From: Paracyclopina nana
Lineage: Eukaryota; Arthropoda; Copepoda; Cyclopoida; Cyclopettidae
Assembly: GCA_019096065.1 (NCBI GenBank)
Contig: JAGUCH010000004.1
Span: forward strand, 4,712,001 to 4,776,000
DNA: 64,000 bases
Direction of reading: 5' to 3'
Numbering within the stretch: the first letter of the stretch is position 1; every line of letters begins with the position of its first letter. Position numbers and translations under genes: made by a program. Shown here in pieces: positions 10,801 to 56,573 of this stretch. The notes under the pieces are model-generated. The model ran no database searches. It had not been told where the DNA came from and saw nothing but the letters and a program-made list of their open reading frames with translations.

Positions 10801-13800
10801 CAGCTCAACAAAATACATAGCATCAACAATGGCAAAACCGAGTAATTTTTCACTCTAAGCAACATATGTGAGCTTTTAGCTTATTTCCCAAGGAAAATGC
10901 AGGAACCTACATACACAAAGCATCATGAATACCTTACTATCATAAAACAGCCAGGCACGTATGTATGGGAATGGAGCATTTAGTACTAAGGCATTTACAG
11001 CAGTTGAAAGAAAAACCCGCATATAACGCTTGACAAGCACATAAAAATGCTCAATTCAAAAACGCCCAAAATATCTAAAGGAATGATTGAGTTTGCTTTG
11101 TAGCCTTTTCAAGCCTTAAACTATGCTCATTCACAATATCTGCTAACTTGGCCTTGACGCTCCAGCAAAAATCAATTTCATGCCGGAGTAATGACTATCA
11201 AGGCGTGAAAGGAAACTTTTTCTGACTTTACTTGCTTCCGCTCGATATACTAGCTGTGATGCATGATGTGGAAGCTTAACGTGACCTCCTGCGAGTAATC
11301 CCAGGTTTGGTTTTATGCTACTTCCCTGCAAAAAGGCTGGCTTAGGACCACTCCTATTTTTATGTGCCACAAGGCCTTGAAGTCGGCCATTAAAACCAAA
11401 AGCTTTACAAGAGAACGTTTAAGAGAGACAAGCGGGGATTTCGAATCAGCAGAATTAACCTTTTTTGCTTGAAGCCTTTTTCTAGCCCAGTGACTTAAAA
11501 TATTGCATCCTTTTTTAACCTCTTTCGAGGGGCCCTTAATCCACTACACTTGATCGGCTCAAGAAATTGGTTGCACTTACTTTCGCAGATCCGCCATAGT
11601 AGGAAAGAACTCGAATGTCTGGAAAAGTCTACCGCCCCGGAAGATAGAAAAGCACAAAAACACACCCAGAGCAAAACTTTCTTGCACTTTCTGCAGTAGA
11701 TGAGCAATGCAAGCAAAAGCTTCTTGCATGGTGAAAACAATCTACTTGGGATTTGATTAGGATCAACACAATTTTTCGAGATAAAAAGGACCTCAATATT
11801 AGGTCCGACTACTTGCTGTTGCGTAAGAAAGCCACGGTGCTTTCCTGCTGATTTAGACTTCAGAGGCTTTTCTGATAACGGCGAACACTTCACTAAATCG
11901 CCCTGAGATGTCCTCCGAAAATATAAAAGGATTTCGCCTCTCTCTTTGAAGAATCATCTTATGAAAAAGGAAACACACTTCCCTTTTGCCACCACCAGTT
12001 CATTTTTCAATACTATGTCACATAAAAAAGGGACTTTATAAGTGAAAGGAAGATCTGCTCCAAGAATGCTACGTTTGGAGAGATGTTGCCGACGATTGCC
12101 AAGAGAGCGCTAACTCAGATTGAACGATGAGTGAAAGTAATACAACTTTACTATGTGATAAACAAAACGTGACTGCGGTTTATTGAGCTGACGATGCGTT
12201 AGCTGATTTTACATAATCAGGGGCGGGAAAATTCAAATACAAAATAACTTTCTTCATTCCCCGCGTTGAGGGCTCGATTAGCCCTTAACTTCGTCGTCGT
12301 CTGGAGCCAGCAGTTGTCTTGACTCTTCTTCCCCGATCTCCATGTTCGCGTCTTCGCCATCGTCCTCCCCCAACGATTCCAACCCAAACGGATCTTGTGG
12401 GTTGGCCGGCATAGGCGGGGCAATCCGCTCGTCCTCTAGCTGAGGTGCCTGTTGCTGCTGCTGCTGCTGCTGCTGATGCGGCTGCGGTTGCGATGGTGGC
12501 AGCTGTTGAGGGGGCGGAGTTCGGTCATCCCCTTCGTAAGGTGGTGGCAAAGTTTCCGCCTTAATTTTGACTTTGACGGTAGGCGTAGGCGGGACCAAAT
12601 CCGATAGCGGAAGAGGAGGCGGCATTGGGACTCGTGATGGGGGCGGAACGTGATCAGACCGGGATTGCTGAGACTCGTATTCTCTCTTAATTCGATTCAC
12701 CGCCTCGGCAATTGCGTTGTCCATCTCGTCTTTTTTGCGTTGTTGTTCCTCTGGAGTAATCATTCCTGAGGGTGTGGACACTGATGTGGTGGATCCGGAA
12801 GTAAGTGAGGGGTCTGATCCCATTGTATATGAAGAAGAGCTACTACCTGACGAATTGGATGGCGTAGCGCTCGGTCTGTATGAGCTATTGGACCCTGTGT
12901 GTGAGGGAGAAGGCGAGGGTGAAGGCGACGGAGAAGGCGAGACCAAATCAACAGTTTGTGGGTTGTTTGTGAACCCTGGCCTCGACCTGAGGAAGACCAC
13001 GTAGTTGGCTTCCTGCTTGCGCAGCTCGCGTTTTTCGTGAAAAGTCATTTGGTACCCTTTCGGGTCATAGAAGTCTTTTATATTGATGTTAGGGTTCTCT
13101 GCAGCGATTCGAGCAATCGCTTGCGCATTGACTATCACGATTTTGTCAGACGTCAAGGTGGAAGACATCCCCGGAGCATCGATGCGAGGATCTCTAAATG
13201 TGAAAGAAATCGGAAAGTTGCGTCCAATGTCCTCCAAATCTCTCCTCGTGTTCGGAAAGTTGCGGCCCGTCTGCAAGGGAGTGTTGGCCGCCTGTTTTGG
13301 CCTCGTTTTGGCGTCGATCTTTTCGATAAGACGGCGCCGTTCATCTTTTAAGCGTGTCCATTGTGTTTTGGCGTGTGCCCTACTTTCCTGCGTGAAGGTT
13401 TTACAAAACATTTCATACGGGTCATCATTAGGATTGACTAGCCGCATATCATTTTCGAAAGCCTGGGCTAATTCCCCGTAAACATTCAAAGAGTCGCGAA
13501 ATCTGCCTTCGCTTAATAATTCGAGTCGCCTCATGTCGGCCTCGACCCATTTCAACCTATCGTTCAATATGCGTAATGGAAAGTCTTTCTTTTCCACGCT
13601 GCCACACTGTTCTTTGGCACCAAGAACTCGTTTTCTCGGGTCCATAAGTAGGCTGGCTGTCATAATGCCTTTGTTTTTAAGTTCCCTGTATATTAGGGCG
13701 AGATCGAATGGGTAGCCAGCACCGTCTTGGGATTGGTAAGCCATGTCGAGAGAGAAGTTTATCTGGTCTGTTCAGATGTGTGTGTGTGAATGTGGAGCGA

Positions 13801-16800
13801 TAAGAGATTTACCCGTCTTTTTATACTCGGGCGAGGGCGAAACTGGTTAGATTGATGGTGCGCTTGCCCGTGCGCAGTCGCAAACCAGTTATGATGGCGA
13901 GTGTCATGTGATTTAAATGAGTATTTGTTGATTTCTCTCGTTATTTGCATTCTTATTAATTTTTGTAAAAGTTCTGACTTTTTATTGTTGTCGGCTCTTC
14001 GCTCGGTCATTTCCCGTTCGGAAGTTGTTTATGTTACGCAAAATAGTGCGTAAGTTCCGTTTGTCAATATTTTCCCCGCTCATGCGCGTGATCACGTGAC
14101 ATGAACTGTTCCCCGCGTCCAATCGCGAGCCGGGAGTCACATATATCTGGAAAAAACTGCTTTCCCCGCGTGTGAGGATTGATTTGACCTTGAAATGAGG
14201 GATGCTGTGACGTCATTTTAATCTTTCATTAAGTGTAGCGGAATTATTTGACGAATTGAATAAATTTCTTCACGGGGTGGTTTTATTTCGTGTAATTTTG
14301 TTTTTATTTGATTTCTGGGTATGAGCATCAGGCACTTTCTGACTATGTTATCTGAGTCACGTATTAATTCTTTTATTCTGCCGTAAGGCCAGGTATGACG
14401 TTTTTTAGTTTCGGATGTCATGAGAATGCAAATTTCTCCGATTTTGGGGTCATCTCTGAATTTTGTCCATTTGGGGTAGCTTCGAAGTTTGTCTATGACT
14501 GCAGTTGTCCAGTCTTTCCAGAAAGTATCTATTAAGGTTTGTACTCCTAAGTATAGTTCCGCGAATTGGCTGTTTTTGTTTATTACTTCAAGCTCGCTAT
14601 TGTCAATTTCGAGTCCGCTTTTTAATATGTCATTTATGCATAGTACTCGATCTATGTTTTCTGTGTCTACGTAGTCAATTGGCCGATCGTTTATAAGACA
14701 TGTTATCATTTCAGCGTATGTGTACAAGCTATCCAGTGTAAATTCAGTGGTTTTAAGGTTTGGGAGTCTTTGTTTTGCTAGTTTGACCATTATTTCTGAA
14801 AGCCCATTATTTTGTGGGCTATATACTGGTGAAAAGTCCCAGTCTTCTATGTGCAGTTCTTTTATTATTTTGTTCGTGTCAGGTACTGTCAATTTTTTAG
14901 CTGCAAGGAATTGCGCTGCATTGTCTGATCGAATTGTCTTAGGAATGCGTCTTTTGCTGCTAAAGCGTTGTAGTGCTGTCAGTACGTGTTCAGTTGCAAG
15001 ACTTTCAGTTATTTCCATATGGAACGCGTGTGTTTGCTGACAAACAATAACTAGGAAGTAGAAGTGGAATATAGGTCTCCCAATTTTTACTTTAATTGGC
15101 CCTGTGAAGTCCATGGAGACATTTTCAAATAAGCGAAGTTTGTCGAGTTTTAAATCCGGAAGAGCAGCCATATGTTGACTTTGGTAAGGCTTTCCTTTTG
15201 CTTTATTGCATTCATAGCAGTGTCTAATTATATCTTTTGCAAGTATACGAAGGCCAGTTATTTGGAAGAACCTCGAGACTTCTGTGATTGTTTCTCTTAG
15301 TGAGCAGTGATTTATTTCGTGAATGTCTTTTACAATTAAGTATGTCAGCGAGTGTCTGCGAGACAGTAGTATTGGCCTCCTTTGAAAAATAGATATTACG
15401 GGTGAGTTTTCTAGTCGGGATTCCCCGCGTATGACTCCATTTGAATCGATTTTTGCAAAGAATTTTAGTAGATCATCCTTTAGGTTTCGATCTTTGTTAG
15501 AAAAGGACTCCTTTTGTGCTTCTATGATGAGGAATGTTAGAGCTTGTCTGTTGATTTCTAGAATTGAGGTAGCTTCTGTCTTTAGATTGAAGCTTTCTAG
15601 GACTTTTCTAGCTGAGGTTCTTTTTTGGCATGCTTTGTGTGCCAATTTTGTTCTACCGTAGTCAATCCATGCAACTGCTTGGATTAGGCTGACTAGATCG
15701 TTATAATGCTTTTTAATGTACTCGTGGGTGAATAGAATGTCATGTTTCTTATTAAGATACTTGAAAACATCGATCTGTTTGTTTGGCCATGACGCTTCCA
15801 ATTTGAATAGAGGCCTTAATTTGTCAAATGACATTGAGGGATTGTAGTTATGTAATTTCAAGTGGCTAAAGAGACATATTTTTGCCATGGATGATCTAAG
15901 TTCATCCTCTTCTTCCTTTGGCATGTTTTGGAACTCTTCATCTGATGGATATGTGTAATCTGGGTCTTCAAGGTTTGGTCCTTTGAACCAAAGTTCACTT
16001 TGTGCCACGAACTCGTCAAAACTAAGACTGCGAGTGCCTTTGTCGGCTGGATTTGAGTTAGTATCCACATAGTGCCATTGGTTTTTGTCTGTTTTTTCTT
16101 TGATTGCACATGTTCTGGTAGCAACGAAAGGTATGAGCCGTCTTTTGGATCTTTTAATCCAGTGTAGAGTGCATTTGCTATCTAGATAATAATGTACGTC
16201 CGTTTTTTCGATTGACATATCGATTAGGTCTAGTTGATTTGACGTGTTTGGTGTGATTTGAGTAGCACAGACTGCTCCCATCAGTTCTGCTTGTGGAATC
16301 GTTCGTCCGGAAGCTGAGATGAGTTTCTTTTTGGCTACAATCAAATGTGCCATTATTCTTGTTTCGTCAAAGTCATTTCTGTAAATTGTGCGTAGGTAAA
16401 CTGCAACGCAGTAAGCTTTTTTCGAGGCATCGCAAAATGCATGTAATTCGCGTTTTGTGACTTTGACATGCGTAGTCACGTAGCGTGGAAGCTTTATTTC
16501 GTCAATTCTTTTGGCTTCATTAGCGAATTTTTGGAATGCTTTTAGTATTGGGTTGATCCTGTCATCCTTGTCTGCGAAGGAAGCCAGTTTGTCGTCCCAG
16601 TCGATTTTTAGCGTGTCATTAAGTCCCCAGACTTCTTGTGCTATTAGTCTCCCTTTTAGTGTGAAAGGGGCTAGTAGATCATGTGGGTCAAAGATTTGAG
16701 CTACTATAGATACTATGTATCGTCTGGTGATATTTTTTAGGTCAGAGTCAGTGATGTGGATTTTTAGTGGTTTGAAGCAAATGAGGTCTTCTTCAGAGAT

Positions 16801-19800
16801 CCAATTGATGCCAAGCGCTTTGACATTTGGAGTGTTCGAGTTAATTTCGAATGATGGATGCCAATCCTCTGTTTCTATTTGTCTCATGAAGTCTCTGTCT
16901 GAAGAAACCCATTTTTTGAAGACCATTCTGGATTTGGCGTGTACGTTTTTGCAGTCATTGTATACGCTGAGAGCTTCCTCTGTGGAAGTGCAGCTGAAGA
17001 TGATATCGTCCATGTAGAGGCATTCACTGAAGACATACTCAGTAATTGGATGTAATTTATTATCTTTAGCTATTTGTTTCATTGTATAAAGTGCTGCATA
17101 AGGTGAGGCTGCATTGCCAAAAACCCATGATTCGAATTGGTACGCTTTGCCTCTGTGGATCATTCTGTGAAAGGGCTTGTCCTCTTCCATGAGGTGCACG
17201 TTTAAGAACATTTTCTCAGCGTCTGCTATGTATCCGTGTTTTTTCATGCGAAATCTGATCCAGATTGACCATATGTCACCTTGTAATTTCTCGCCAGTTA
17301 GTACTTGTGAATTGAGTGAAAGTCTTTCTGGACCATATGGCCTTGCTGCATCCATGCAAACTCTGACTTTTGTGGTTAGTCTGTCGATTTTTATGACCAT
17401 TACTCGAGGTATGTAGAAGCCAACGAGTTTGTTTTCATCATCTCGTAGTAGTCTTAAGCAGCCGTATTTGACCATTTCGTCTATAGTATCATCTACTTGT
17501 TTCATAGCTTCGGGGCCAAGTCTGTCTTCTTGTTTCATTTCGAAGTTCAGTACTTGGTAATAATTGTTTGGAAGTGGCGGTGGGTCTGGATTGTGGTGGT
17601 GGAGGTGCAGTTTTGGGTGTCTCATCTGACCTCAGAACTTCTTTTTCAGTAAGGAATTTCTCCTGTGTGTTCAAGGAGATGCGTGAGATGTCAAGACCTC
17701 CGTCCATGGAGTACATGAAGGAAGAGTCTGCAAAGGACAGGTGTGTGCTGTCCGGATTGTCTTTTTCTTTTTGCTTCTGTAGATTCCTGATTGTCATGCT
17801 GTAGACTCTAAGTCTGAGTCTCATTTTGTTCCATGTTTCTTGTAGCTTCTGAGCATGATCGATGATGATGTCTGATTCTTCATCGTTGTCAGCTCTGGCT
17901 GCGTATATGGCAGAGATCAGGATTTGGGCTTGTTGAGCTGATTTTCTAGCGTCTAGCATTTCCTGTATGTATTTCTTCGTGTCCTTGATCATGTCTTTTG
18001 GGCTAGTTTTACTCCATTCCGATATTTTTGATTGTACCTCGGAGATCAACCCTTTTGCTTCGGTTTCGAGCTCGTTCCAGTTTGCGACTTCGAATTCGCT
18101 GTCTGATGGATAGTTAGCGGCCATGTTGTAATGATTGGGCTATTAGAATTTGACTTTTATTATCGTGATCTGTGTACAGAGTTAGGTTTTAGTAATGACA
18201 ATGTATTGTAGCTTGAGGATGACGATTATCTTCAATATTGTCCTTTGGATTTCGTGGTGACGTCGTAATGAGAAGCATCCGCTGTTTGTGAGGCTTCTTT
18301 TTGATGTTTGTCTGTAAATAGAAATGTCTTTTAGAATGATGAATTTCGTGATTGGATCACTTCTGTTGGCTAAGCCTTGATCCGCTCGTCGTAATTCTAA
18401 AGACTTTCAATATGGGTGAATTTCGTCCGGGTCAAAACTACTTTTGGCTCGAGAGAAATTGTCAGTGGGGAATCCAACGCGTTAGTACGTGACTCTTTTT
18501 GCTTTGGATTCGTGGGTTTGAATTCGAAACTTTAGTCTATGACTCTTTTTGTTTCAAATTCTGGGTTTAGCGTGTGTGTGGCTAGTGCGGTATGAGTGTG
18601 ATTTGAGAATCTCAGGAAAATTGTCTTGGTTCACCTGTTGTTCACTTGGGCGCCATGAAAGGAAGATCTGCTCCAAGAATGCTACGTTTGGAGAGATGTT
18701 GCCGACGATTGCCAAGAGAGCGCTAACTCAGATTGAACGATGAGTGAAAGTAATACAACTTTACTATGTGATAAACAAAACGTGACTGCGGTTTATTGAG
18801 CTGACGATGCGTTAGCTGATTTTACATAATCAGGGGCGGGAAAATTCAAATACAAAATAACTTTCTTCAATAAGCACACAGAGAGACACGTGAAACTGGG
18901 AGCACCATATACTGGCCACCGAGCATAAATCCGAAAGTCTCACTTCAATCTACATTCTCTTGCACCAGCCATGTTTTCACTAACTAGTCAAGCAGATTAA
19001 CGCTCAATCATGGTTTTGCATAGCAACACACTAGTGTCACGAGCAGATCCCCAAAGCTCAACCTGAAAGAGAAAACATTACCACAAGCCTTCGCTGCTAA
19101 TAAATCCGCCATCTGTCTGGACGCCAGCTTTCTAACAGAAAAAAACCCAAACCAATCATGCTACCTAGTGCAGAACCATGGCATTGAACAAAAAAAGGGA
19201 AACACAACAAAGGGACCTCAGATAATTGAAAAACATGGGTGCTTAATTCCAGCCCTGGAATCCGAGGAATCTTGCCCCTAAGCACAGTTGGGCTCTTCCA
19301 TAGCCAAGAGACTTGCATTTATCTAGAAAGTGTCTAATCAGTATATAGGAATACCTCTCGTGGACCTTTTTCCACCTCATTAGCGGTCAAGTGGGGCGGG
19401 CCTCAAGAGAACAGCAGACTGGCAAGAATATTGGCTGACAACCAACTAGGAGCAAGGGATAAATTATACAAATAGTGTACTGCCAGTGAACACGAACTAA
19501 ACATGAAAAGGAACTACGCCAAAAAATAGAGTATTTCAGCAGCAAAATCCACTGCAAGAAAATTAGATTAGTCCTACTTTCGGTAATTGGAATGGCAATG
19601 GAAGTCCTTGAATTGGCTCTACCGAATGAAGATCCGGAAGGCTCAAGAAATAACATTTGCATGTATCGACTCCAAAGAAAAATAAGCTAAATGAAATTTT
19701 ACATTTCAGGTATCGTGAAAAGCTCCGAGTTCACGCCTTACGAGTAATGTCAGTCGTTGAAAAGACAATGCACAGGCTGAATGAAGAGACAAAAGCTGGA

Positions 19801-20532: not shown

Positions 20533-22180
20533 ATGAAGTGGACAGTCATCTGTTTCCTGGGATTAGCCCTCTTGGCTACCTCAGAGGCGAAATCCTATGA
20601 CAAGTAATTCTCCTGATAAGCGAAACAATTTAGAAAGCCCCTCCACGAAACCTTTCTTTTTCTTAAGCTACAAGGTTCTCCGGACGAGCAAGTTGTCACT
20701 GGAGCAGGCAGAAGTCTTGAGAGAACTGGAAACGGTGTACGACTTTTGGAGGCCAGCAAGATCCGGAATCGAAACGGACATCATGGTTGCTCCAGGACAG
20801 GAGGAAAAGTTCCTCATCAATAAACTAGCTAACTTGGGCATCGAGACTTCAGTCCTGATTGAAAACGTTGGCGGACTGATTAAGAGCCAAGAAGAAGTAG
20901 GACAGCTCAGATTCAACGGAAAAATCTCCTTTGACCAATACTATTCTCATGATGACGTACGGTATCATTAACAACAATGCAGTTTTCCCATCAAAATCGA
21001 TCATTTGCAGTTGAATGCCTTTTTGGAAGAAGTAGCAAAGGAGTTTGAGTTTGCCAATGTCGTTTCCATTGGCAGCTCATATGAGGGACGCGATATGAAA
21101 GTCCTTCAAATTACCAAAGCCGGAGAGGGTAAGCCCAACGTTTGGATCGAGGCTGGCATTCATGCACGCGAATGGATCTCTCCGGCCATGGCAACATACA
21201 TTATCGACTCTTTGCTAAACCATGACGAGAACAACTTCATCGATCAACTCAATTTCCATATCCTCCCCAGTGCCAACCCGGACGGTTATGAGCATAGCAG
21301 AAGCAATGTAACTCAGTACGATTTCATAAGTCTTTTAACTTATTCATGAATGGTTTTCAAGGATCGATTGTGGAGGAAAACCAGGTCTGAACACGGTTCT
21401 ATCTTATTATGCAAGGGTGTGGATGGAAACCGTAATTGGGACTTTCATTTTGCAGGTAATGACACATTTGCAGTTACAATGAAAGAATGAATATCGTTTA
21501 TAAAAATGCCACACAGAAAGTGGAGCTAGCAATAGCAAATGTGCGGAAACATACCATGGACCAGAGGCCTTTTCCGAAGTAGAAATGCAACATATCAGGG
21601 ACTACGTTCTGAGCCTGGATCCTGTTCCGGTCCTGGCTCAATGTTTACATAGCTATTCTCAGCTTTGGTAAACCTACGCATATAAACCTTCTCTTTCATA
21701 CTTTTTAAAGAATATTTTTGTACACAGGTTATGGCCCTATGGATATGCTTACAATGCTTATCCAGATAATTACCAAGAAATCGTGAGTCAACATGACCTG
21801 TTTAACTTTTGACAAATGACATTTGAAGCGTCCTTACTCTAATTTTAGAAAGCCTTGGCTGAAGAGGCCGTCAAGGCTCTAGAGGCCGTTCACGGGACAG
21901 TTTTCGACCCTATCAACTCTGCTCAACTTTGTAAGTCATTTCAGTGTTGAGACGACTGAAAAGTGGTATTCCGGATTTACTTACAGATCCAGCAGCCGGC
22001 GCAAGTGATGATTGGTACAAGGGTGTTTTGGGAGCCCGATTTTCCTACACCACGGAGTTGAGGGACACCGGAAAGTATGGGTTCGTTCTTCCTCCAAATC
22101 AAATCAAGCCAAGTGGTGAGGAACTTTGGGCGGCACAGACAGTCGTGTTTCAAAAGATGATTGATGTTTCCAACGAATAA
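20533..22180 (+). CDS. Secreted M14A metallocarboxypeptidase, 8 exons
   Basis: This is a zinc exopeptidase made as an inactive precursor. Exons are 20533-20603, 20668-20956, 21011-21307, 21362-21455, 21517-21667, 21728-21782, 21849-21930 and 21987-22180; all phases agree. The order is signal peptide (MKWTVICFLGLALLATSEA), propeptide of about 90 residues beginning YDNYKVLR, then the catalytic domain. Zinc ligands are in GIHAREW and in CLHSYSQLW; substrate-binding Arg residues are in DGYEHSR and DGNRNW; the catalytic Glu is in TTELRDTG. The specificity position falls in GASDDW, where Asp is typical of carboxypeptidase B (Lys/Arg release). Nearby residues differ by a one-residue insertion, so B-type specificity is likely but not certain. 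It is probably digestive. The stop codon lies inside AATAAA. Confidence 0.93.
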
Positions 22181-23725: not shown

Positions 23726-26146
23726 CGTGGATAAATGTGATGAGGCAAAGAGGAATATGTGGCAAGAGACCTGCAAATGGACGACAACGGTGGCCGAAAA
23801 TACAAGTTTGCACGGCGTCGTGTGGTATGCTCGCACAAGCAATAAAGCGTTTAAGGCTACGATTTGCTTGCTTTCATCCATCGTGATTGTGGCATTGCCA
23901 GTCATCCTAGTTGTGCAACTGGTGAGCTTTCACAAAAATTCGACAGTTTTGAGCAGCATCGATTGGGTCAAGAGTGACAATGCTACCTATCCTAACATCA
24001 CTGTATGCCATCCTAGATTTTTCGACGGGCTTAAAATGCAAGGTAATTAGGCTTATCAGCTTTGCACAATACAGCCTTGATTGCTTTTTGGGATTTTTCA
24101 TCACTTATAAAATCTCCTGTAGAGCACTAAACATAATTAGGTCTATTGTCAGCTACTTGCTCGGTACATGATGAAAAATGAGTATGTAGCGCGACACACA
24201 CGCGAATGTCGTATTTCTATGCCAAAAGTATCTTTAATGGCTTTCACGGTTCGATTTCGGCCATTAATCGTGCCATTCAACCATTTTTCCCATCATGGTA
24301 ATTTTATTTTTAGAACGTTTTGTAAAAAAAATACGGACCATTCTTCACCTTGGACTATATAAAGCCTTAATTAATTTTTTTGCCACATTTCAGAGTATGG
24401 CGTCAGTAATTTGCTTGCAAATTACATGCTTGGGGTGATGAACCCCTCCTTCGGAAAATTCTATCATACCTTCCGAGATTCAGCTCTTGGCCCGTCCATA
24501 GTGGCCATTGTGGAACCGATGAAAGCTGAGCTAACGAAGAAAATGAAAGAGCATGGATTTGACCAGCTCAGCCAGTTTTTCAGAGCATTGGCCATAAGGT
24601 AGGGAAAACTACGTATGCTCGACAACATTCACACTTTTGCATTTCCCCATGAGAGTACAGGGAAAGCACATGTCAAGATAAGAATCTCAATCTTGTGACT
24701 CTCATTAGGGGGTTTAAAAGGTGTACGCCGGAGTTGTCAGCAGCAGCAAAAAGTAGGCTCATTTTTCACAGCGTAGAATAAATTTCAAACGTGTCAGGCT
24801 GCATGACATTTGATGTACTTTTTTTAGCTGTGATGACTTGATTGGCTATTGCGAGGATCACAACAAGTTTTATGCCAACGGGCCAACCAAGGTGGTCATG
24901 AATGGGTCTTCTTGCTGTGAGACACTTTTTCATGCAGAGCCCATTTTCACCTTTATGGGAACTTGCTACACCACCAAATTGGCCGTCGTGGAAACCAACC
25001 CATCTGTGTTTGAATCAATAAATATTTGGCTGCATGGACTGTCCGAGGACCGTCTTGTGAGTAAGTGTAATAACCACTGGAAAACAGTGCTGAAATTGAG
25101 GAATGCAATCATGCAGATTTCACCATGCTTTTGCATGGCTCCACGGCCTCGGAGAGAGGTGGATTTGGATATGCTTTGTCGACTAACGATCACCCTGCTG
25201 GCAATATGTTGGGTAACATGAGAAAAATATCCACTGGAACGGTGACAGTCATTGGGCTTGAGAAAAAAGAGGTGTGTTCTATTATGTATCATCCAGTGTA
25301 GCATTAGTATACTACTGTATGTTATATAAGAGTGTTTACATTACACTCGTGTATTCATGTTTGTAGCACTCCAAGCTATTTTCAGTTCGACCGAAAAGAC
25401 ATCCGATTCGAAACTTGCATGGAGAAGAATGAGACCTTCGAGCAAATCTATAGATTTGCTGCCACCAAAACTAACTGCAAATTGGTCCTCACTGACTCGC
25501 AATTCGCCAACTGCTCCATGTTTGCATACCAAGGGCTATCACAACGTATGTATTTTCCTTGTGGTAGTAGTACATCGTTGACATGCTTGTTATGTTGTTT
25601 ATTCAGTTCATGGTCAATCCAAGCCTGATTGCAAGCCCTCCAATTTGATTGAAGATCAACCACTCAACGTGACTTTTGACTGCCCAAACGACTGCTACCG
25701 GTCTGATTTCGCTGAAACTGTTGCTACCTCTGAGCTCTTGCAGAATGCAGCCGACGAGTTTCAGACCTTTCTGCCAGAAAACATTCGGGTGGACACTTCG
25801 TGAGTGCTAAATTCATTAGATAGTATCAATGATGCAAATCCATCCAAATTATTCGTCGTAGGCGATATGCAGTGCTGAGGTTTTACTTTCGAAGCCTGGA
25901 CTACTCGAATTTCAAGCAATTTCAAGAGACCTGGCTCGACTTCTTTTGTAAGCATTTTTATTACTGCTGAAGCCTGCAAAATAGTACTATTGTGTGTGTG
26001 TGTGTCAATTTTCAGCCAAAATCGGGGGCTGGATGGGTCTGTCCGTGGGGGCCTCGGTGCTGTCCTTCGCGGAAATCATAGCCTTCTTTGCTATTTTCCT
26101 CAAAATGGCTGCCAAAAACATTTTTGCCAAAAAAAACTATGCATAA
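23726..26146 (+). CDS. DEG/ENaC (pickpocket-like) sodium channel subunit, start not settled
   Basis: This is a subunit of a trimeric amiloride-type sodium channel in the plasma membrane. Recognised exons are 23726-24042, 24394-24598, 24828-25060, 25117-25271, 25386-25545, 25607-25799, 25862-25947 and 26016-26146; phases agree. The family His-Gly gate motif is in ENTSLHGVVW, followed by TM1 (ICLLSSIVIVALPVILVVQL) and YPNITVCHP. The Cys-rich extracellular region includes GSSCCETLF, GTCYTTK and CPNDCYRSD. TM2 follows GGWMGLSVGASVLSFAEII, which holds the GxS selectivity filter (Gly-Ala-Ser) and the family's conserved Glu. The first exon starts at an acceptor. Translation could begin at the ATG at 23757 or in an upstream exon. 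Such channels serve mechano-, chemo- or peptide-gated sensing; which applies here is unknown. Confidence 0.88.
25991..26005 (+). repeat. (TG)n microsatellite in the last DEG/ENaC intron
   Basis: About seven TG units directly before the acceptor CAATTTTCAG, so length changes could alter the distance to the splice site. Confidence 0.7.
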
Positions 26147-26280: not shown

Positions 26281-27151
26281 TTAGCAGAGTGAGTGGTCCC
26301 AAAGGCAGAGGTAATGATTGAGGGTGGCCTCGCTGGGCTGCTGCTCGTCCTTCTTTAGCCGCAACTGCGAGATTCGCTTGCGCAGCCTCATCATTGACGG
26401 GCCTCGGACCGGCCGATTCAAAGGCTCTGCGGATTTTCGCCGCAGTCGCATCATTGACATTGCCCTTTTGTACAAGTCGTGCTCGTCATCCGTCGTCATC
26501 TCAGGCTGATGCTCTTCACTCAAAGTTGGCGTCTTCTTCAGCCTCAGCATCGACACTCCAGCTCGTTTCTGGAATTCAACTTCAATTATGAGGATATCTA
26601 GAAGCTGCTCAAGCCTCATCGAGGAATTTGCGTTGCATTGAAAAACGCAGCGAAGCTTGGCTACTTGGATGCACCCTAATTAATGTACCCTAATGTGCAG
26701 TAGATAAGTTTTTAATTTATAATGGGTATTTTCTCCTCGTTAAATTCATGCAAGTTATCTATTTAAAAGAATTGGGCCTGTTCTTCCCATGAAGGTACTC
26801 AAAAAGTGCCTGCTCATGAAAGCTGGCTTATATGCAATTATCGATATTACGCTAAAGCCTTGAATTCTTCATGTGTACGTACAAACGAAAAATTCCCAGC
26901 AACTTTTTAAAGTTATAAATTATGTTATTTTCGCTCATTTAAATTAGGCTGGTAAATAGTGATTCAGAAATGTACGAGATGCTTATTTTTTCATAACTCA
27001 CTGGGTGATAGGAATCTCTGATATTTGTCGAATATGCAGCAGAGATTGAGGCAGCAGATGAGCTCTCAGTTGGCCATGCTAGCAGTAAAATGGCAGCTAC
27101 GAAAATGCTGAGGATCCAGTCATAGCTGCTCCGATGTATTTTCCCACCCAT
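26281..27151 (-). CDS. Myomodulin-like neuropeptide precursor, 2 exons
   Basis: A 145-residue secreted precursor. Exons are 27002-27151 and 26281-26568, joined in phase 0 (donor CCA|GTGAGT, acceptor TTCCAG|AAACGA). The ATG at 27151 starts a signal peptide with the hydrophobic core ILSIFVAAILLLAW. Exon 2 opens with Lys-Arg, and four related peptides follow between dibasic sites: AGVSMLRL before KK, AMSMMRL before RRK, GPSMMRL before RKR, and ISQLRL before KK. The core S-M-(L/M)-R-L is the signature of molluscan and annelid myomodulins (for example PMSMLRL-amide). Unlike those, no Gly follows the Leu in any copy, so the peptides should end as free acids or with retained basic residues. A C-terminal stretch carries two Cys. 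A short-neuropeptide-F origin is less likely because no Arg-Phe-Gly is present. Confidence 0.7.
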
Positions 27152-27333: not shown

Positions 27334-29441
27334 TTATTGGCCGTTCAGCTTCTCGTCTTCTGCTACGGGCGCTTCTTCGTCCGAAGACTCAGCTTTGGCT
27401 GGGAAGCAGCCACAAAAGGCCTCTTTGATTGCCTTGGCCAATGGCCCGTTTTCAGGGTCCTTTTTGATGGCGTCGCACAGCTCAAAAAAGGACACAACGA
27501 ATCCGACAATCAAGAACACCAGGAGAAGTAGGACGGCGCCAGCTGGAGGAAGATGTAATTAGCCGGGAATAATGACTCTTAAATGAATTATGCTCACCAA
27601 CTTGAGGGATATCCAAGGCGAGAGAGTCTTCGATGGACTTGCCAACGATGGCAGCGTTTGGACAATCTCTGGCAGGCCACCATTTGCTCATCAGTGACTG
27701 GAGCTCTCCATTTTCGTTCTTCTCCAAAATCAGCTTTGAAAGCTCAGCGAGCTTAGTTGAGCCTTAAAGATACCATGAGAAATTAAAATCAAAATTGCTT
27801 GGAAAGATGAGGATTACCTTTGGGACCAGCAAGTGCGTAATATCGAGTAGCCAGATTACCGGTTGCATAGTAATTGCAGTTGGAGCTCAACCAGTAATCA
27901 GCCGATCCTCCCTCCATAACGACGCCGAAAGTTCCTCCCTCAGTAGATTCCAACTTTTTGATGGCTTCTTTATTGGAGGAAAACAAGCTCTCCTCGGAGT
28001 ACCTCTCAATCCTGGCATAAATCTCCTTATGCACCTCATCATTGGAGTTCTAAGCAATTGAATTTGGAAAAGATTTTTAACTGCATATACAGATGGCGCC
28101 ACCGTAGGATAAACGGAAGTACTACCAGAAGGGGTTTACTTTTACATATTTACGTTTTGGCATTTTCACCTGCCGAATGGTGAAAATATTCTTATAATAA
28201 TTTCATAATTGCTTTAATTTAGAAAGCAAATTCATATAATTTTGCTCAATAACAACAACTGGGATTGTGGCAGTTATTTCTATAGATCTCTTATTCACAT
28301 TTTGGTGTATAACTATAAGCATTCGCTAACCTTTAGGAGATTATATGTTGATCCTTGACCAAAGCAGGCAAAACGAAAGTCAGGATTAGCCAGCATGTCG
28401 TCGACATTTTCGTATCGGAAAGTGGCCTTGCCAGAGACCAAAAAAGGATACAGGGTCACCGCGTAAGCCACGAACACGATGATGGCGAAAATCCACCAGC
28501 CCAAAAGGATGATACGTTTGGAGCAAGCCTGGAATGCAAAAAAGATCTTTAATCTCATCAGTGACACCTCTCAAGAGATAAATGACCGGACTGCAACAGT
28601 TATTTACTAGTTCCTTGACTGACCCATAATAGAATTTGAGAAATCGCTATTCTGTGCAACTTACAGTCGGTGCGGGCCTAGACGCATAAATGAAAGCTGA
28701 GGCAATTTGCCACATAGCCTCTCCCAGGCCGAGACCCTTTTCACCAGGATTCACCCTGGAAGCCAGCCAGAATGCGACGCAGGTGAGCAAATAAGCCAGG
28801 AGGACCAGCAGCCACAATTGGAAGGAAAACGGGGCGAAAACCAGGCTCAAATTGTCGGCCAGCCCATTAACGCCACCCTTTGCATAAAACATAATTTATG
28901 GCATGCATTAATTATGATGCTTATTAATGATCGCGTTCTTACTGCCTTGGTCAGTACGACGAGCTTGTTGTCCATAAATGGGACTGAGAAGTCGACAACT
29001 TCTGCCCTTTTATCAGTCATGGTCAAGTCCGCGGCAATTAGATCAGCTTTCTATAAAAGGAAACGTGCGAATTGGGCTGAGGATTGCAGCGCGAGAGCAG
29101 AAATTAAATTAATTACGTTGTCCATCACCATTCCAATCATTCCGGTCCATTTTCCCGTGGTAGCATCCGCAGTTCCATACTTTCCATCCTCAGGGATCAC
29201 AATTTCATACTCAATGCCCAGATTGTCGAGCATATCTTTGATGAATCCCTCATACTCGCCCTCGCTCGTTTCCATCAAATAGGGAGGAGACTGCCATAAT
29301 TATCATCACATTACAAATTCTTGATAAATCATTCTTAATTAATCGTGTTACCGCAGTCACTGACACCACTTTGAGGGAATCAGCCCATCCAGAATGGATG
29401 TACAGCAAGGTGAGTATCAAGCCTACTTTCAGCAACGTCAT
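27334..29441 (-). CDS. Ionotropic glutamate receptor-like subunit without an amino-terminal domain, 8 exons
   Basis: This is a short ligand-gated channel subunit of 462 residues. Exons are 29352-29441, 29117-29290, 28943-29050, 28665-28877, 28331-28528, 27818-28049, 27598-27762 and 27334-27542; all phases join. The signal peptide (LLKVGLILTLLYIHSGWA) is followed almost at once by ligand-binding half S1, with PPYLMETSEG, DGKYG, WTGMIG and ADLTMTDKRAEVVDFSVPFM; the agonist-binding Arg is in TDKRAE. M1 is FQLWLLVLLAYLLTCVAFWL, a pore loop follows, and M3 is WWIFAIIVFVAYAVTLYPFL. S2 keeps a Glu at the agonist position (GVVMEGGSADYW), and M4 is VLLLLVFLIVGFVVSFFEL. The usual 400-residue amino-terminal domain is missing, and M3 lacks the SYTANLAAF motif. 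It could be an arthropod IR or an ATD-less receptor like those in rotifers. Confidence 0.88.
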
Positions 29442-31371: not shown

Positions 31372-33794
31372 ATGTCTGGCCAACAAGGTGGCTCGGGGAG
31401 TGCTCACAAAAGCAAATACAAAAATGCGGGTCTCGACTCTCAAGAGATGCGGAGACGAAGGGAGGAAGAAGGCATCCAATTGCGAAAACAGAAACGTGAA
31501 CAACAATTGTTCAAACGGCGCAACGTGCACACAGAGGATATACTGCAGGTAACAATTCTCCCGCGGCTTCAACTTCATTAGCTCAAACTAGTAGAAAATT
31601 GATTGAAAAACCAAAACGTCACAATTAACCGAGGTTGTCAAAGAGACCGAGGCCTTTCTGCAATCAAAACTTTCAATCAGTTGCAATGTCAAAGTCGTCT
31701 AGTGCTGTACACTCTAGTTCAAGGTCGAACGACTTCTCATCCTCCGGCTCAGAGGGGGATGATGAAGAGGTATTGGTTGACAAGCTTTTGCAGCTTGATG
31801 TTGAGAATAGAGATAATAAATCTTTGAACGAACTCTTGGCTGAGTTGGAAGAGGAGAAAACGATTGAGAAACTATTGCATCTTGATAAAGAGAAATCTAA
31901 TGATAAGCAGGATGACATGGTCTCAACGTCGGGTCTCTCGTCAGAAGTCGGTGTTGTCGCCAACCCAGGACAACATGTTGAGGCTCCGCTCTCACAAAAC
32001 GGCCAGATCACGCTCCAAATGGTTCAGGACCTCTACTCAAACAACATCGACGACCAACTATTGGCGACGCAACGATTCAGGAAACTGTTGTCCCGAGAGC
32101 CCAATCCTCCCATTGACGAAGTGATCGCGACTGGAATCGTCCCCAGATTTGTGGAATTTCTCAAGACTTCGGTCAATCCAACCCTTCAGTTTGAGGCAGC
32201 TTGGGCCTTGACGAACATTGCGAGCGGGACTGCGAACCAGACGAGAATCGTCATCGACTCGGGGGCTGTGCCCATTTTCGTCCAACTACTCTCTTCCTCC
32301 TCGGAAGACGTGCAAGAACAAGCAATATGGGCTCTGGGCAACATCGCTGGAGACTCTCCCGAGTGCAGGGACTACGTTTTGGCTGAGGTACCTACATCTT
32401 TCTAACATTGTTTTAAACTAACTCTTGCACACATTGCCGAATGTACTGAACGTTTATTTAGTTGTTACTTGCAAATTTTTAGTAGTTATTCCCCATAAAG
32501 ATTAATTAGGGGCCCAAATGTTTAATTACTACATGTCCCCCCTTGAGGGAATGATTTAACGAATTGCTAAGTTTCTGTGAGGCAATTATCTGCTGTAATG
32601 AGCCAACTAATTGTAATCAATTCTTTAGGGTATTGTGGCTCCACTCCTGCACGTTTTGAAAGAAACTACACGCGTGTCTATGAAAAGAAACGCTGTATGG
32701 TCTCTTTCAAATTTGTGCCGTGGTAAGAACCCTCCACCAGACTTTGCCAAGGTCTCCCCATCCCTACCTATACTCTCTCACCTTCTTTTCCACAACGACA
32801 CTGATGTATTGGCTGATACCTGCTGGACCTTGAGCTACCTCTCCGATGGCCCTAATGAGAAAATCCAGGCTGTCATCGACTCGGGAGTGTGTAGAAGGCT
32901 CGTTGAGCTTTTGATGCACCAGCAGCCCTCGGTCGTTTCGGCTGCCTTGAGAGCTGTTGGCAATATAGTGACGGGAGATGATGTCCAGACTCAGGTCATT
33001 TTGAATTGCTCCGTGTTACCTTGCCTTCTGCAACTCTTGAGTGCGAGCAAAGAGTCCATTAGAAAAGAGGCTTGCTGGACCATTTCCAACGTCACCGCAG
33101 GAAATCGTCATCAGATACAGACCGCCATTGATGCCAATGTGTTTCCCGTTCTCATTGACATCCTATCACGCGCAGAATTCAAGACGAGGAAAGAGGCTGC
33201 TTGGGCAGTGACCAATGCAACCTCAGGAGGTGAGTTTATGCAGTGAAAGTATTGATTGAACAGATATACTGTATGTTTAGATAGACGTTTTAATAGAAAG
33301 CCATTTGTCATACCTGTAATCAAAACTAGGACAGTTGCTAATTGCAAATCAAGCGCCAAAAAAATGCTTATTACTATAATTACTTTTCGATTACAGGAAC
33401 GGCCGATCAAATTAAGTACTTAGTGAGCCAGGGCTGCATTCCCCCAATGTGCGACCTCCTCACTGTACAAGATCCAAAAATTGTGCAGGTTGCCTTGTCT
33501 GGACTTGAGAATATCCTACGGTTCGGTGAGCAGGAGGCTAAAGAAACTGGCGGCACTAATCCCTATGCCGTGCAAGTCGAGGAATGCTACGGATTGGACA
33601 AAATCGAGTTTTTGCAGTCTCACGAAAACCTTGACATCTACAAGAAGGCGTTCGACATAATAGAGCGCTACTTTGGCTCAGAGGAAGAGGACAACCAATT
33701 GGCTCCTTCGATGGATGCACAAGGACAGCAATTTGAGTTTAACCCCACTATGGCTGCACAAGGAGATCAGCCCGAGGCTAGTTTTCAATTCTAG
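31372..33794 (+). CDS. KPNA6: Importin alpha (karyopherin alpha, KPNA1/5/6 type), 4 exons
   Basis: This adaptor recognises nuclear localisation signals and pairs with importin beta for import into the nucleus. Exons are 31372-31548, about 31634/31695-32387, 32629-33229 and 33397-33794; the left edge of exon 2 is not settled. The N-terminal importin-beta-binding domain is clear ([21 protein letters not shown] and [14 protein letters not shown]), which places it in the KPNA1/5/6 clade. Armadillo repeats follow with the NLS-groove W..N signatures ([74 protein letters not shown]). Between the two domains lies an unusual acidic segment with a partly duplicated KLLxLDxE unit, making the protein roughly 80-90 residues longer than its usual 530-540. 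A poly(A) signal lies at 34255. Confidence 0.92.
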
Positions 33795-34498: not shown

Positions 34499-36381
34499 AT
34501 GTCGTGGCTATTTGGTCTGAATAAAGGTCAGAATATCGAAGCTCCTCAAGTTCCCACTTTTGAGGAAGGGAGCAGTGGTAATGAAGGTGGTCCAACTGGT
34601 GGGGCCGCTGGTGGCAGCATTGGGGGCAATGCTGAGGGCTACCGATCAGAAGCTTACTCTTTTGACTCCACTGCTTTGGAGAGAGCAGCCAAAGCTGCAA
34701 AGGTTTGAACTAACATAATGGGATCTTGTAAGGATCGTGTTACATAAGCATTTGATCTTAGGACCTCGAGAAATCCAAGTTTGCTTCTCAAGCCTTGGAG
34801 CTGTCCAAAAGTCAAGAAGAGACTCGCCAAAAAGAGCAAATGGTCAAGATCAAGGAGTACGAAGCTCACATCGAGCAAATGAAAATTGACCAAAAGAGAG
34901 TAGAGGGAGAGCAGAGGAGGAAAACACTCGAGGAAGAGGCCAAGCATTCGAAATACAATGCAGAGTACCAAGACAAGTTAGCTCGTCAACGCTACGAAGA
35001 CCAACTGGTCCAACAACGACGCAGTCAGGAGGAGAACTTGAAGAAACAGGAGGAATCGGTGGCCAAGCAAGAGCAAATGCGTCGTCAGACTCTGGAGCAA
35101 GAAATGGAAATGAGAGCTAAAGCAGACATGAAAAGGATCGAAGCGGAAACTGCGGCCAAGGCCAAAATCGAGCGTGAAAACCAAGATCTCTATTTGGAGC
35201 AGATTCGTTTGAAGGCCAAGGAGAACCGCGGTACTGTCATGGAAGGCATCAGAACTGCTGGATCCGTTCTTGGTGCCGGTGCTGATGCTTTCCTTAAGGA
35301 TTGGGACAAGGTTACGGCTGCAGCGGCTGGAATCTCGCTACTCGCTCTGGGTGTGTACACTGCCAAAAGGGGCACAGGAGTGGCAGCTTCATACATATCT
35401 GCAAGATTAGGAAAGCCCTCGCTTGTTAGAGATACCTCGAGATTTTCCTTCTTTGAGACGCTCAAGCATCCGGTGAATACGATTCAAAAGTTCCGGAAAT
35501 CCCCCCAAGATGCTCTTAGTGGAGTTGTCCTTGAGCCCAACCTGGAAGCAAGACTCCGAGACGTTGCCATAGCGACCAAAAACACCAAATTGAATGGTGG
35601 CATGTACCGTAATCTGCTTTTCTACGGGCCTCCCGGAACTGGTAAAACCATGTTTGCCAAGAAGCTGGCCATGCACAGTGGCATGGATTATGCCATCATG
35701 ACTGGTGGTGATGTTGCTCCGATGGGACGGGACGGTGTCACAGCTATGCATAAAGTGTTTGATTGGGCATCGACATCGAGGAAAGGACTCATCCTTTTTG
35801 TAGATGAGGCTGATGCCTTCCTACGCAAACGAAGCTCAGAGAAGATCAGTGAGGACCTTCGATCCACTCTCAACGCTTTCCTCTACAGGACTGGTGAACA
35901 AAACGACAAGTTCATGCTGGTGTTGGCTTCCAACACTCCGGAGCAATTGGATTGGGCCATCAACGATCGTCTAGATGAAATGATTGAATTTGCTCTTCCG
36001 GGAGACGCAGAACGAGAAAGGCTGGTGAGGCTGTACTTTGAGAAGTATGTCCTTCAGCCAGCTGTGGAGAACGTGAAGGGACGCAGGTTGAAAGTTGAGG
36101 ACATGGACTACGGAGCTCTGTGCACAGAGATTGCCAAGAAGGCTAAGGGCATGAGTGGTCGTGAAATTGCCAAGCTGGGAGTAGCTTGGCAAGCCTCGGG
36201 CTACGCGAGCGAGGATGGCACCTTGACAAGAACCATGATCATGGAGAAGGTTGACGACTCGGTGCGAAGCCACCTGAAGAAGGTTCAATGGTTATCAGAT
36301 GAAGAGGTGAGAGAAAATCGACAGGCTACGTACAAGAGCAAGAAGGACGCGGGCAGCATCACATTAGAGCCAGTGGCCTAA
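34499..36381 (+). CDS. ATAD3A: ATAD3 mitochondrial AAA+ ATPase, 2 exons
   Basis: This inner-membrane ATPase helps organise mitochondrial nucleoids, cristae and contacts with the ER. Exons 34499-34702 and 34762-36381 give 607 residues, close to human ATAD3A (586-634 depending on isoform). The N terminus [10 protein letters not shown] is diagnostic, followed by a Gly-rich linker and [10 protein letters not shown] long coiled coil runs through about residues 70-230 ([25 protein letters not shown]). The membrane segment is [16 protein letters not shown]. The AAA+ domain has Walker A GPPGTGKT, Walker [12 protein letters not shown], sensor-1 Asn in [10 protein letters not shown], and the Arg finger region in INDRLDEM. 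There is no sign of damage, and the only intron is 59 nt. Confidence 0.97.
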
Positions 36382-47686: not shown

Positions 47687-47688
47687 TA
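47684..47688 (-). promoter_or_regulatory. UAAUG stop-start overlap between pol and third ORF
   Basis: On the minus strand GAT TAA TGACG: the pol stop TAA (47688-47686) and the ATG of the next ORF (47686-47684) share one A. Such overlaps are used for coupled termination and reinitiation in some retroelements and viruses. Confidence 0.6.
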
Positions 47689-54987: not shown

Positions 54988-54990
54988 TCA
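54988..54990 (-). other. In-frame UGA between first ORF and gag-pol
   Basis: The frame reads AGT TGA TCC and is open for 515 codons before and about 2433 after. No ATG follows for dozens of codons, so readthrough, splicing or a recent nonsense mutation must explain expression of gag-pol. Confidence 0.75.
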
Positions 54991-56535: not shown

Positions 56536-56573
56536 GGACCCGGGACAGTCTCAGGGTTGGGGCTGCCGGTGTA

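What the first reader, a model, noticed from the sequence alone, without database searches (positions are those of the whole stretch)
26281..27151. Myomodulin-like peptide precursor whose peptides lack the amidation glycine
Four peptides with the core S-(M/Q)-(L/M)-R-L sit between dibasic sites after a signal peptide: AGVSMLRL, AMSMMRL, GPSMMRL and ISQLRL. This matches myomodulins of molluscs and annelids, which are C-terminally amidated from Leu-Gly-Lys/Arg. Here all four copies go straight from Leu to basic residues, so no amide can form. Either the peptides act as free acids or with retained Arg/Lys, or this is a convergent family. If the organism is an arthropod, the occurrence itself is unexpected.
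Basis: partly seen in the sequence, partly recalled or inferred. Interest (0 to 1): 0.8.

Follow-up and report, generated by a model that had tools for sequence, protein, structure and literature searches.

The report
Unamidated neuropeptide precursor in probable copepod
A small arthropod, probably a copepod, carries a gene for short nerve-signal-like peptides that resemble mollusc myomodulins but lack the usual chemical cap; the same uncapped design recurs in dozens of unnamed relatives, although the animal's genome also holds capped look-alikes.

Summary
Exons 27151-27002 and 26568-26281 (minus strand; GT-AG intron, 433 bp) join in phase into a 145-aa precursor with a hydrophobic N-terminus and AGVSMLRL, AMSMMRL, GPSMMRL and ISQLRL at basic sites. 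No second copy was found in the 92-Mb genome.

It is conserved. Three searches gave 97 distinct unnamed homologues. Of 425 (S/T)x(M/L/F/I)R(L/I) cores, 424 run straight into two basic residues and none into Gly. So the missing amide is a family trait, not a local oddity.

The myomodulin reading is only partly right. The same genome has a PHM exon, amidated myosuppressin (the arthropod orthologue of myomodulin, PMC8557429) and a separate precursor with 26 GKR sites, mostly (Q/E)MLRM, which fits the myomodulin description better.

TTAGG telomeres and an LNR-domain burst like that of Oithona nana suggest a cyclopoid copepod.

Most likely: a secreted multicopy precursor of free-acid 'xRL' neuropeptides. 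Receptor, expression, mature ends and kinship to myomodulin are untested.

The parts
27002..27151 (-). Exon 1: start codon, signal-peptide-like N-terminus, first 50 residues
   Evidence: In-phase join and translation; hydropathy
26569..27001 (-). Intron, 433 nt, GTGAGT...TTCCAG
   Evidence: acceptor position suggested, not proved, by homologues P0005, P0006, P0008, P0009
26281..26568 (-). Exon 2: all four peptide units, C-terminal tail and stop
26539..26562 (-). Unit 1 AGVSMLRL, preceded by KR, followed by KK
   Evidence: AGVSMLRL, SGVSMLRL or GGVSMLRL in P0002, P0005, P0006, P0008
26443..26463 (-). Unit 2 AMSMMRL, preceded by KR, followed by RR
   Evidence: KRAMSMMRLRR invariant in the 13 rows of A1
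26383..26403 (-). Unit 3 GPSMMRL, preceded by R-P-V-R (RxxR), followed by RKR
26356..26373 (-). Unit 4 ISQLRL, preceded by RKR, followed by KK; absent in part of the family
26284..26307 (-). C-terminal CLWDHSLC (C-x6-C), end of a 22-residue tail peptide after the last KK
   Evidence: after the last unit C-x6-C in 54 of 98 sequences, C-x4-C in 1, C-x7-C in 1, none in 42, some of them truncated

Best explanation
The gene encodes a secreted multicopy prohormone of an arthropod peptide family that has no name in the libraries and texts I searched. A convertase cuts at KR/RR/RKR/KK and at the RxxR before unit 3. A carboxypeptidase strips the C-terminal basic residues. This leaves four peptides that end in a free-acid Arg-Leu (AGVSMLRL, AMSMMRL, GPSMMRL, ISQLRL) and a 22-residue tail that can form a C-x6-C disulfide loop. 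The peptides most likely act as neuropeptides or hormones on a G-protein-coupled receptor that accepts a free carboxyl end. The core resembles myomodulin, but the gene is not the animal's myosuppressin and does not meet the amidation criterion of myomodulin.

Shown: gene structure in DNA, repeated units, basic sites, no Gly after any core of the homologues found, no second copy found, and a PHM exon, convertase P-domains, myosuppressin and a separate amidated LRM-type precursor in the same genome. Inferred: splicing, secretion, cleavage, trimming, receptor type, neuronal expression, and the host (a cyclopoid copepod near Oithona).
For: Structure. 97 homologues in three searches. 424 of 425 cores followed by two basic residues, 1 by VS, 0 by Gly; with a wider core pattern on the first 60 sequences, 240 of 249 by two basic residues, 9 by other letters, 0 by Gly. 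Unit columns 0.76 identical to the window, spacers 0.14. The animal can amidate: one of 11 Cu2_monooxygen matches, on C4, matches solved PHM at 8.6e-23; myosuppressin exons end DHVFLRFGR and DHVFLRFGKR; a separate precursor has 26 GKR sites. Convertase P-domains: 9 exon matches, the one typed is nearest furin. Free-acid arthropod peptides exist: proctolin, whose receptor type lies in the same protostome group as the myosuppressin/myomodulin receptors (passage in PMC8557429).
Against: No transcript, peptide or receptor was seen for this species. KK, the commonest site in the family (213 of 425), is usually a weak convertase site (recalled). In R-L-(K/R)-R the core Arg could be kept as a P4 cleavage residue rather than for a receptor. 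The searches were seeded with unamidated sequences and so favour such sequences. The 97 hits are partly fragments and not independent, and carry no organism names. Some homologues do have a Gly before two basic residues outside the cores: 5 of 60 sequences checked (P0004, P0033, P0035, P0036, P0054), so an amidated by-product is possible in those.
Confidence: 0.78

Rival explanations
1. A true paralogue of the myomodulin/myosuppressin lineage that lost its amidation glycine by descent, as the annelid non-amidated W(I/L) precursors are thought to have diverged from amidated MIP.
For: SMLRL/SMMRL core like that of mollusc myomodulins (recalled; LRL/LRMamide ends in PMC6425005); an amidated (Q/E)MLRM/SMLRL precursor in the same genome could be a sister gene, and one of its units...EEVLRKR, has itself lost the Gly; precedent in Platynereis (passage in PMC3890597).
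Against: A five-residue core is too short to prove homology; none of the 98 sequences mixes amidated and free cores; no Pfam family to link them; receptor not identified.
Confidence: 0.3
2. Convergence: an arthropod family that arose apart from myomodulin and fell on the same (S/T)x(M/L)RL core.
For: No Gly in 425 cores, wide core variation (SMMRL 136, SMLRL 70, TQMRL 65, SQMRL 49, SYMRL 26, SLMRL 18), a C-x6-C tail in 54 of 98, and a separate myosuppressin gene.
Against: The full match to SMLRL is striking, and nothing excludes descent.
Confidence: 0.45
3. The single C-terminal disulfide peptide is the main product, and the repeats are spacers or cleavage signals.
For: C-x6-C after the last unit in 54 of 98.
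Against: Unit columns are the most conserved part (0.76, against 0.6 in the only 3 tail columns that could be scored); 42 of 98 lack the cysteine pair, though some are truncated.
Confidence: 0.08
4. Mature peptides keep one or two basic residues (for example SMMRLRR) because trimming does not occur.
For: No trimming enzyme was tested here.
Against: The letters of the site vary (KK 213, RR 121, KR 68, RK 22) while the Leu before it is nearly fixed, as expected if the basic residues are removed.
Confidence: 0.1
5. Not a neuropeptide: a cationic secreted peptide of another use, such as defence or glandular secretion.
For: Expression unknown; the units are short and cationic.
Against: Multicopy units of 6-8 residues with precise basic bounds and strong conservation are the pattern of neuropeptide precursors (inference).
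Confidence: 0.07

Closest known systems
Spiralian myomodulins (molluscs, annelids, nemerteans)
   Same: Several short peptides per precursor, SMLRL-type core, basic cleavage sites.
   Different: Known ones are LRL- or LRMamides (passages in PMC3890597 and PMC6425005); Gly follows 0 of 425 cores here and in the 97 homologues. Anti-myomodulin staining in Drosophila was used as a marker of PRXamide neurons (passage in PMC1933254), so older 'myomodulin-like' reports in insects are not evidence for this gene.
Arthropod myosuppressin
   Same: Given as the orthologue of myomodulin (passage in PMC8557429); present in this genome.
   Different: Another gene on C4, with DHVFLRFamide ends; identified by recalled motifs.
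Amidated (Q/E)MLRM/SMLRL precursor of the same genome (C1)
   Same: Many R(M/L)-ending units bounded by KR; one unit SMLRL.
   Different: 26 units carry GKR, though at least one further unit...EEVLRKR, does not; acidic N-terminal extensions; 473-codon open frame. Its relation to the copepod-only DXXRLamide family named in PMC4696782 (passage) was not tested: no sequence of that family was seen.
Platynereis non-amidated W(I/L) peptides beside amidated MIP
   Same: A whole precursor family without amide next to an amidated relative (passage in PMC3890597).
   Different: Unrelated peptide sequence; annelid.
Proctolin
   Same: Non-amidated arthropod peptide (passage in PMC8557429).
   Different: Single RYLPT-type peptide, not multicopy (recalled).
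sNPF (PSLRLRFamide)
   Same: A PS-x-RLR stretch resembles GPSMMRLR(K) (recalled motif).
   Different: No aromatic amide end. A PSLRLRFG-type DNA pattern gave one hit in this genome, read by hand as PCFRLRFG, and one hit of the reversed control; sNPF was neither found nor excluded.
HanSolin, RFLamide
   Same: Recently named orphan arthropod peptides.
   Different: GQPLRWamide-type and ...IRFLamide ends (passages in PMC7179676).

Membership tests
Myomodulin | Several copies of a short peptide with an (S/x)M(L/M)R(L/M)-type end | tested here: met
   Four units in the window; 425 cores in 98 sequences
Myomodulin | C-terminal amidation (Gly before the basic site) | tested here: not met
   0 of 4 in the window, 0 of 425 in the family
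Myomodulin | Receptor of the myomodulin/myosuppressin group | not tested
   15 exon matches to the Srw GPCR model exist in the genome; no named reference receptor was on hand to type them
Myomodulin | Being the genome's copy of the arthropod orthologue, myosuppressin | tested here: not met
   Myosuppressin is a different gene on the same contig, about 1.4 Mb away; an older paralogy is not excluded
Neuropeptide precursor (general) | Signal peptide | tested here: inconclusive
   Hydrophobic N-terminus by hydropathy; no dedicated predictor available
Neuropeptide precursor (general) | Conserved units bounded by basic sites, variable spacers | tested here: met
   Units 0.76 (42 columns), spacers 0.14 (46 columns), in columns with at least 5 of 12 homologues
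Neuropeptide precursor (general) | Expression in neurons or endocrine cells, peptide detected | not testable with these tools
   No expression or mass data
sNPF | RLRFamide end | tested here: not met
   Units end in RL + basic residues
Any Pfam family | Match over the curated cut-off | tested here: not met
   No family for the precursor at E 0.01; at E 1, five families matched one member each of 13, best E 0.015

The most novel reading that the evidence does not exclude
A widespread but unnamed arthropod neuropeptide family of obligate free-acid (S/T)x(M/L)RL peptides exists beside amidated LRMamides in the same animal. The two precursors together make one signalling system split by the chemistry of the C-terminus, with a receptor branch adapted to a free carboxylate, as for proctolin. 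In about half of the sequences the prohormone also ends in a C-x6-C cyclic peptide.
Probability: 0.4. Interest if true: 0.7.

Novelty: new variant of a known kind. Interest (0 to 1): 0.55.

Why it matters
Many short neuropeptides need C-terminal amidation for activity (recalled). A large family that keeps a myomodulin-like core without the amide, in an animal that amidates other peptides, is a natural test of what the amide is for. [quoted passage not shown]

Tried and rejected
Rejected: chance pattern (homologues). Isolated loss of the glycine: the same state holds throughout the family found. Second copy in the genome: none found with the exon-2 protein or with homologue P0031. HanSolin and RFLamide: different motifs.

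Led nowhere: COX1 for naming the organism, no hit. Blo-t-5 and insect odorant receptor 7tm_6, no hit, but nothing rang in the controls either, so absence is not shown. Viral and prokaryote contig scans with A1: 6 and 175 pattern stretches, none confirmed. PDB search with the myosuppressin N-terminus: one chance-level match, E 0.47. sNPF pattern. I first leaned towards an oribatid mite from the chromosome number (recalled); the LNR burst changed that.

Amidated probe: 67 matches at E<=10. The best-scoring ones (C2:1,380,449, E 5.4e-8; C7:52,627, E 2.0e-7) showed no repeated G(K/R)(K/R) site in the script and were not identified. The C1 precursor itself scored only E 0.31 to 2.9. I looked at 11 fetched stretches and the 4 loci of the best matches, not at all 67.

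Literature limits: unit strings were searched in full text. PSMMRL, MSMMRL, GVSMLRL, VSMLRLKK, PSMMRLRK, SMMRL, TQMRL, PSFMRL, PSMLRL, SQLRLKK, PSYMRL, SQMRL, MRLKK, MLRLRR and MLRLKK were in no paper; AMSMLRL was in one mollusc paper. Of the 11 papers, the five with SMLRL are mollusc papers by title and the six with MRLRR unrelated by title. Further listings seen only as listings. Passages read in PMC5627052, PMC7212414, PMC12035899 and PMC6585902 held nothing on this family. Supplements and most subscription papers, including the copepod and chelicerate peptide surveys, could not be searched, so 'unnamed' means unnamed in what I could search.

Full report
WHAT IS THERE. On the minus strand, exon 27151-27002 and exon 26568-26281 join in phase 0 across a 433-nt GT-AG intron and give a 145-residue protein with a hydrophobic N-terminus and four units, AGVSMLRL, AMSMMRL, GPSMMRL and ISQLRL, each bounded by basic residues. 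Exon 2 as query finds one place in the genome, and so does a homologue (P0031). The pattern [ST]x[MLFI]R[LI][KR][KR] occurs seven times in the six frames of the window, four of them here; 60 block-shuffled windows gave a mean of 0.75 and a maximum of 3.

NEIGHBOURS. The next open frame upstream on the same strand stops at 27334, about 180 bp before the start codon; I take it as the end of an ionotropic glutamate receptor-type gene (Lig_chan-Glu_bd at 29051-29299, E 1e-13; Lig_chan at 28647-28895, below the cut-off), though the exons were not joined. Elsewhere lie a zinc carboxypeptidase exon (20972-21346), an Arm-repeat gene (32629-33243, importin-alpha-like from recall), ATAD3 (34762-36378) and a ceramide kinase-type gene (60793-62133). 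Nothing suggests that the precursor belongs to any of them.

FAMILY. The first search gave 12 proteins at E<=10, 8 of them at E<=1e-3. A profile of 13 gave 59, and a profile of 16, led by long members, gave 70. Together these are 97 distinct entries of a database clustered at 90% identity, with no Pfam domain and no name other than 'hypothetical protein'. I read 78 of the 97 sequences and counted over all 97 plus the window by script. There are 425 cores of the form (S/T)x(M/L/F/I)R(L/I), at least one in each of the 98 sequences. They are followed by KK (213), RR (121), KR (68), RK (22) and once by VS at the start of an open frame; Gly never follows. A wider core pattern on the first 60 sequences gave 249 cores, 240 before two basic residues, 9 before other letters, none before Gly; five of those 60 have a Gly-basic-basic site elsewhere in the protein. 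Caveats: the searches were seeded with unamidated sequences, many hits are fragments, and cores are not independent. But no sequence mixes amidated and free cores, which partial loss should show. In alignment A1 (12 homologues) unit columns match the window at 0.76, spacers at 0.14, the N-terminal 36 residues at 0.24, and three tail columns at 0.6. A C-x6-C pair follows the last unit in 54 of 98, C-x4-C in 1, C-x7-C in 1, none in 42.

SPLICING. In P0005, P0006, P0008 and P0009 the reading before KR(A/G)GVSMLRLKK ends in LQ or FQ, as an intron tail ending in CAG would; the window's exon-2 frame read upstream gives EFQ|KR. This is suggestive only, since Q also stands before RR in P0002, which reads as a joined precursor. 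P0002, P0003 and P0013, from the source labelled merc (a marine eukaryote catalogue built from transcripts, as I recall), run from a hydrophobic-looking N-terminus straight into the units.

ORGANISM. G000 has 91.95 Mb in 10 contigs. (TTAGG)n arrays lie at 4 of 10 contig starts read (C2, C5, C6, C7; two of the ten starts read N) and at 3 of 4 contig ends read (C1, C3, C5); this is the common arthropod telomere repeat (recalled). LNR (Notch-type) domains: 38 matches at E<=0.001, with only 150 of 437 candidates scored. [quoted passage not shown] a custom profile, so numbers are not directly comparable). A GSEFLamide precursor is present, but that family or close relatives are reported from all four arthropod subphyla (passage in PMC4696782), so it does not discriminate. 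I infer a cyclopoid copepod close to Oithona, at about 0.8; no tool named the organism.

CAN THIS ANIMAL AMIDATE? Very probably. Myosuppressin, recognised by recalled motifs, lies on C4: an N-terminal exon with PPRIRKICEALSTIWQFSDAMENYL and two possible last exons, RDLDHVFLRFGR at 3,334,053 and AEDVDHVFLRFGKR at 3,334,791. AST-A-type (FGLGKR) and GSEFLGKR arrays are present. So the lack of amide sites is a property of this gene.

AN AMIDATED LOOK-ALIKE. Probing the genome with recalled amidated myomodulin units gave 67 matches at E<=10; many lie at contig ends with repeated internal TAG stops, probably telomere repeats. I looked at 11 fetched stretches and 4 loci. The two best-scoring matches (E 5.4e-8 and 2.0e-7) showed no repeated Gly-basic-basic site and remain unidentified. 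A lower-scoring one (E 0.31 to 2.9), C1:2,092,352-2,093,770, is a 473-codon open frame with 26 GKR sites; the five residues before them are QMLRM 15, EMLRM 4, and SMLRL, GVLRM, EIMRM, KMLRM, QVLRL, DFIRV and NMLRI once each. At least one further unit...AENYEEVLRKR, lacks the Gly. Its first exon was not traced. By published description (LRL/LRMamides; passages in PMC3890597 and PMC6425005) this gene, rather than the window gene, is the more myomodulin-like precursor of this animal, although the arthropod orthologue is given as myosuppressin (passage in PMC8557429). PMC4696782 says that DXXRLamides are known only from copepods (passage); whether this gene is one of them I could not test.

MECHANISM. 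Convertase P-domains are present (9 exon matches; the one typed is nearest furin). Cleavage at basic sites and trimming would leave free Leu ends. The letters of the basic site vary while R-L is almost fixed, which fits removal of the basic residues. R-L-(K/R)-R also fits a convertase site with P4 Arg, so part of the constraint on Arg may be for cutting. The receptor is unknown. The protostome receptor group that holds myosuppressin/myomodulin also holds proctolin, a non-amidated ligand, which makes that group the first place to look; 15 exon matches to the Srw model exist, untyped.

VERDICT. A real, conserved, multicopy precursor without amidation sites; myomodulin-like in core but not a myomodulin by the tests made. 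Descent with loss of amidation and convergence both remain open.

Noticed in passing
G000 C1:2,092,352-2,093,770 (L056 4352-5770): Multicopy precursor with 26 GKR sites and cores mostly QMLRM/EMLRM, one SMLRL: a myomodulin-type LRMamide gene in an arthropod, separate from the given finding.
   Followed up: partly
G000 C1:2,090,669-2,091,378 (L056 2669-3378): Just upstream of it, open frames with repeated ...(D/E)DR(F/Y)GKR units and, before them, a cysteine-rich stretch: a second precursor of unidentified family.
   Followed up: no
L016 654-2274 (G000 C4:3,333,206-3,334,826): Myosuppressin gene with two candidate last exons (RDLDHVFLRFGR and AEDVDHVFLRFGKR), possibly alternative splicing giving two myosuppressins.
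   Followed up: partly
window 25,985-26,146 (+): Open frame with GGWMGLSVGASVLSFAEI, which from recall looks like the end of a DEG/ENaC channel on the plus strand, converging on the precursor gene; an upstream frame (24814-25218) gave no Pfam match.
   Followed up: no
window 12,281-18,139 and 43,304-56,550 (-): Very long open frames (up to 2433 codons), the second stretch GC-rich (0.52-0.59); perhaps retroelements, not searched.
   Followed up: no
G000, many contigs: At least 38 LNR (Notch-type) domain matches, an expansion like that of Oithona nana.
   Followed up: partly
P0035, P0036, P0054 and others: A few homologues carry a Gly-basic-basic site outside the cores (5 of 60 checked), possibly an extra amidated product.
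   Followed up: no
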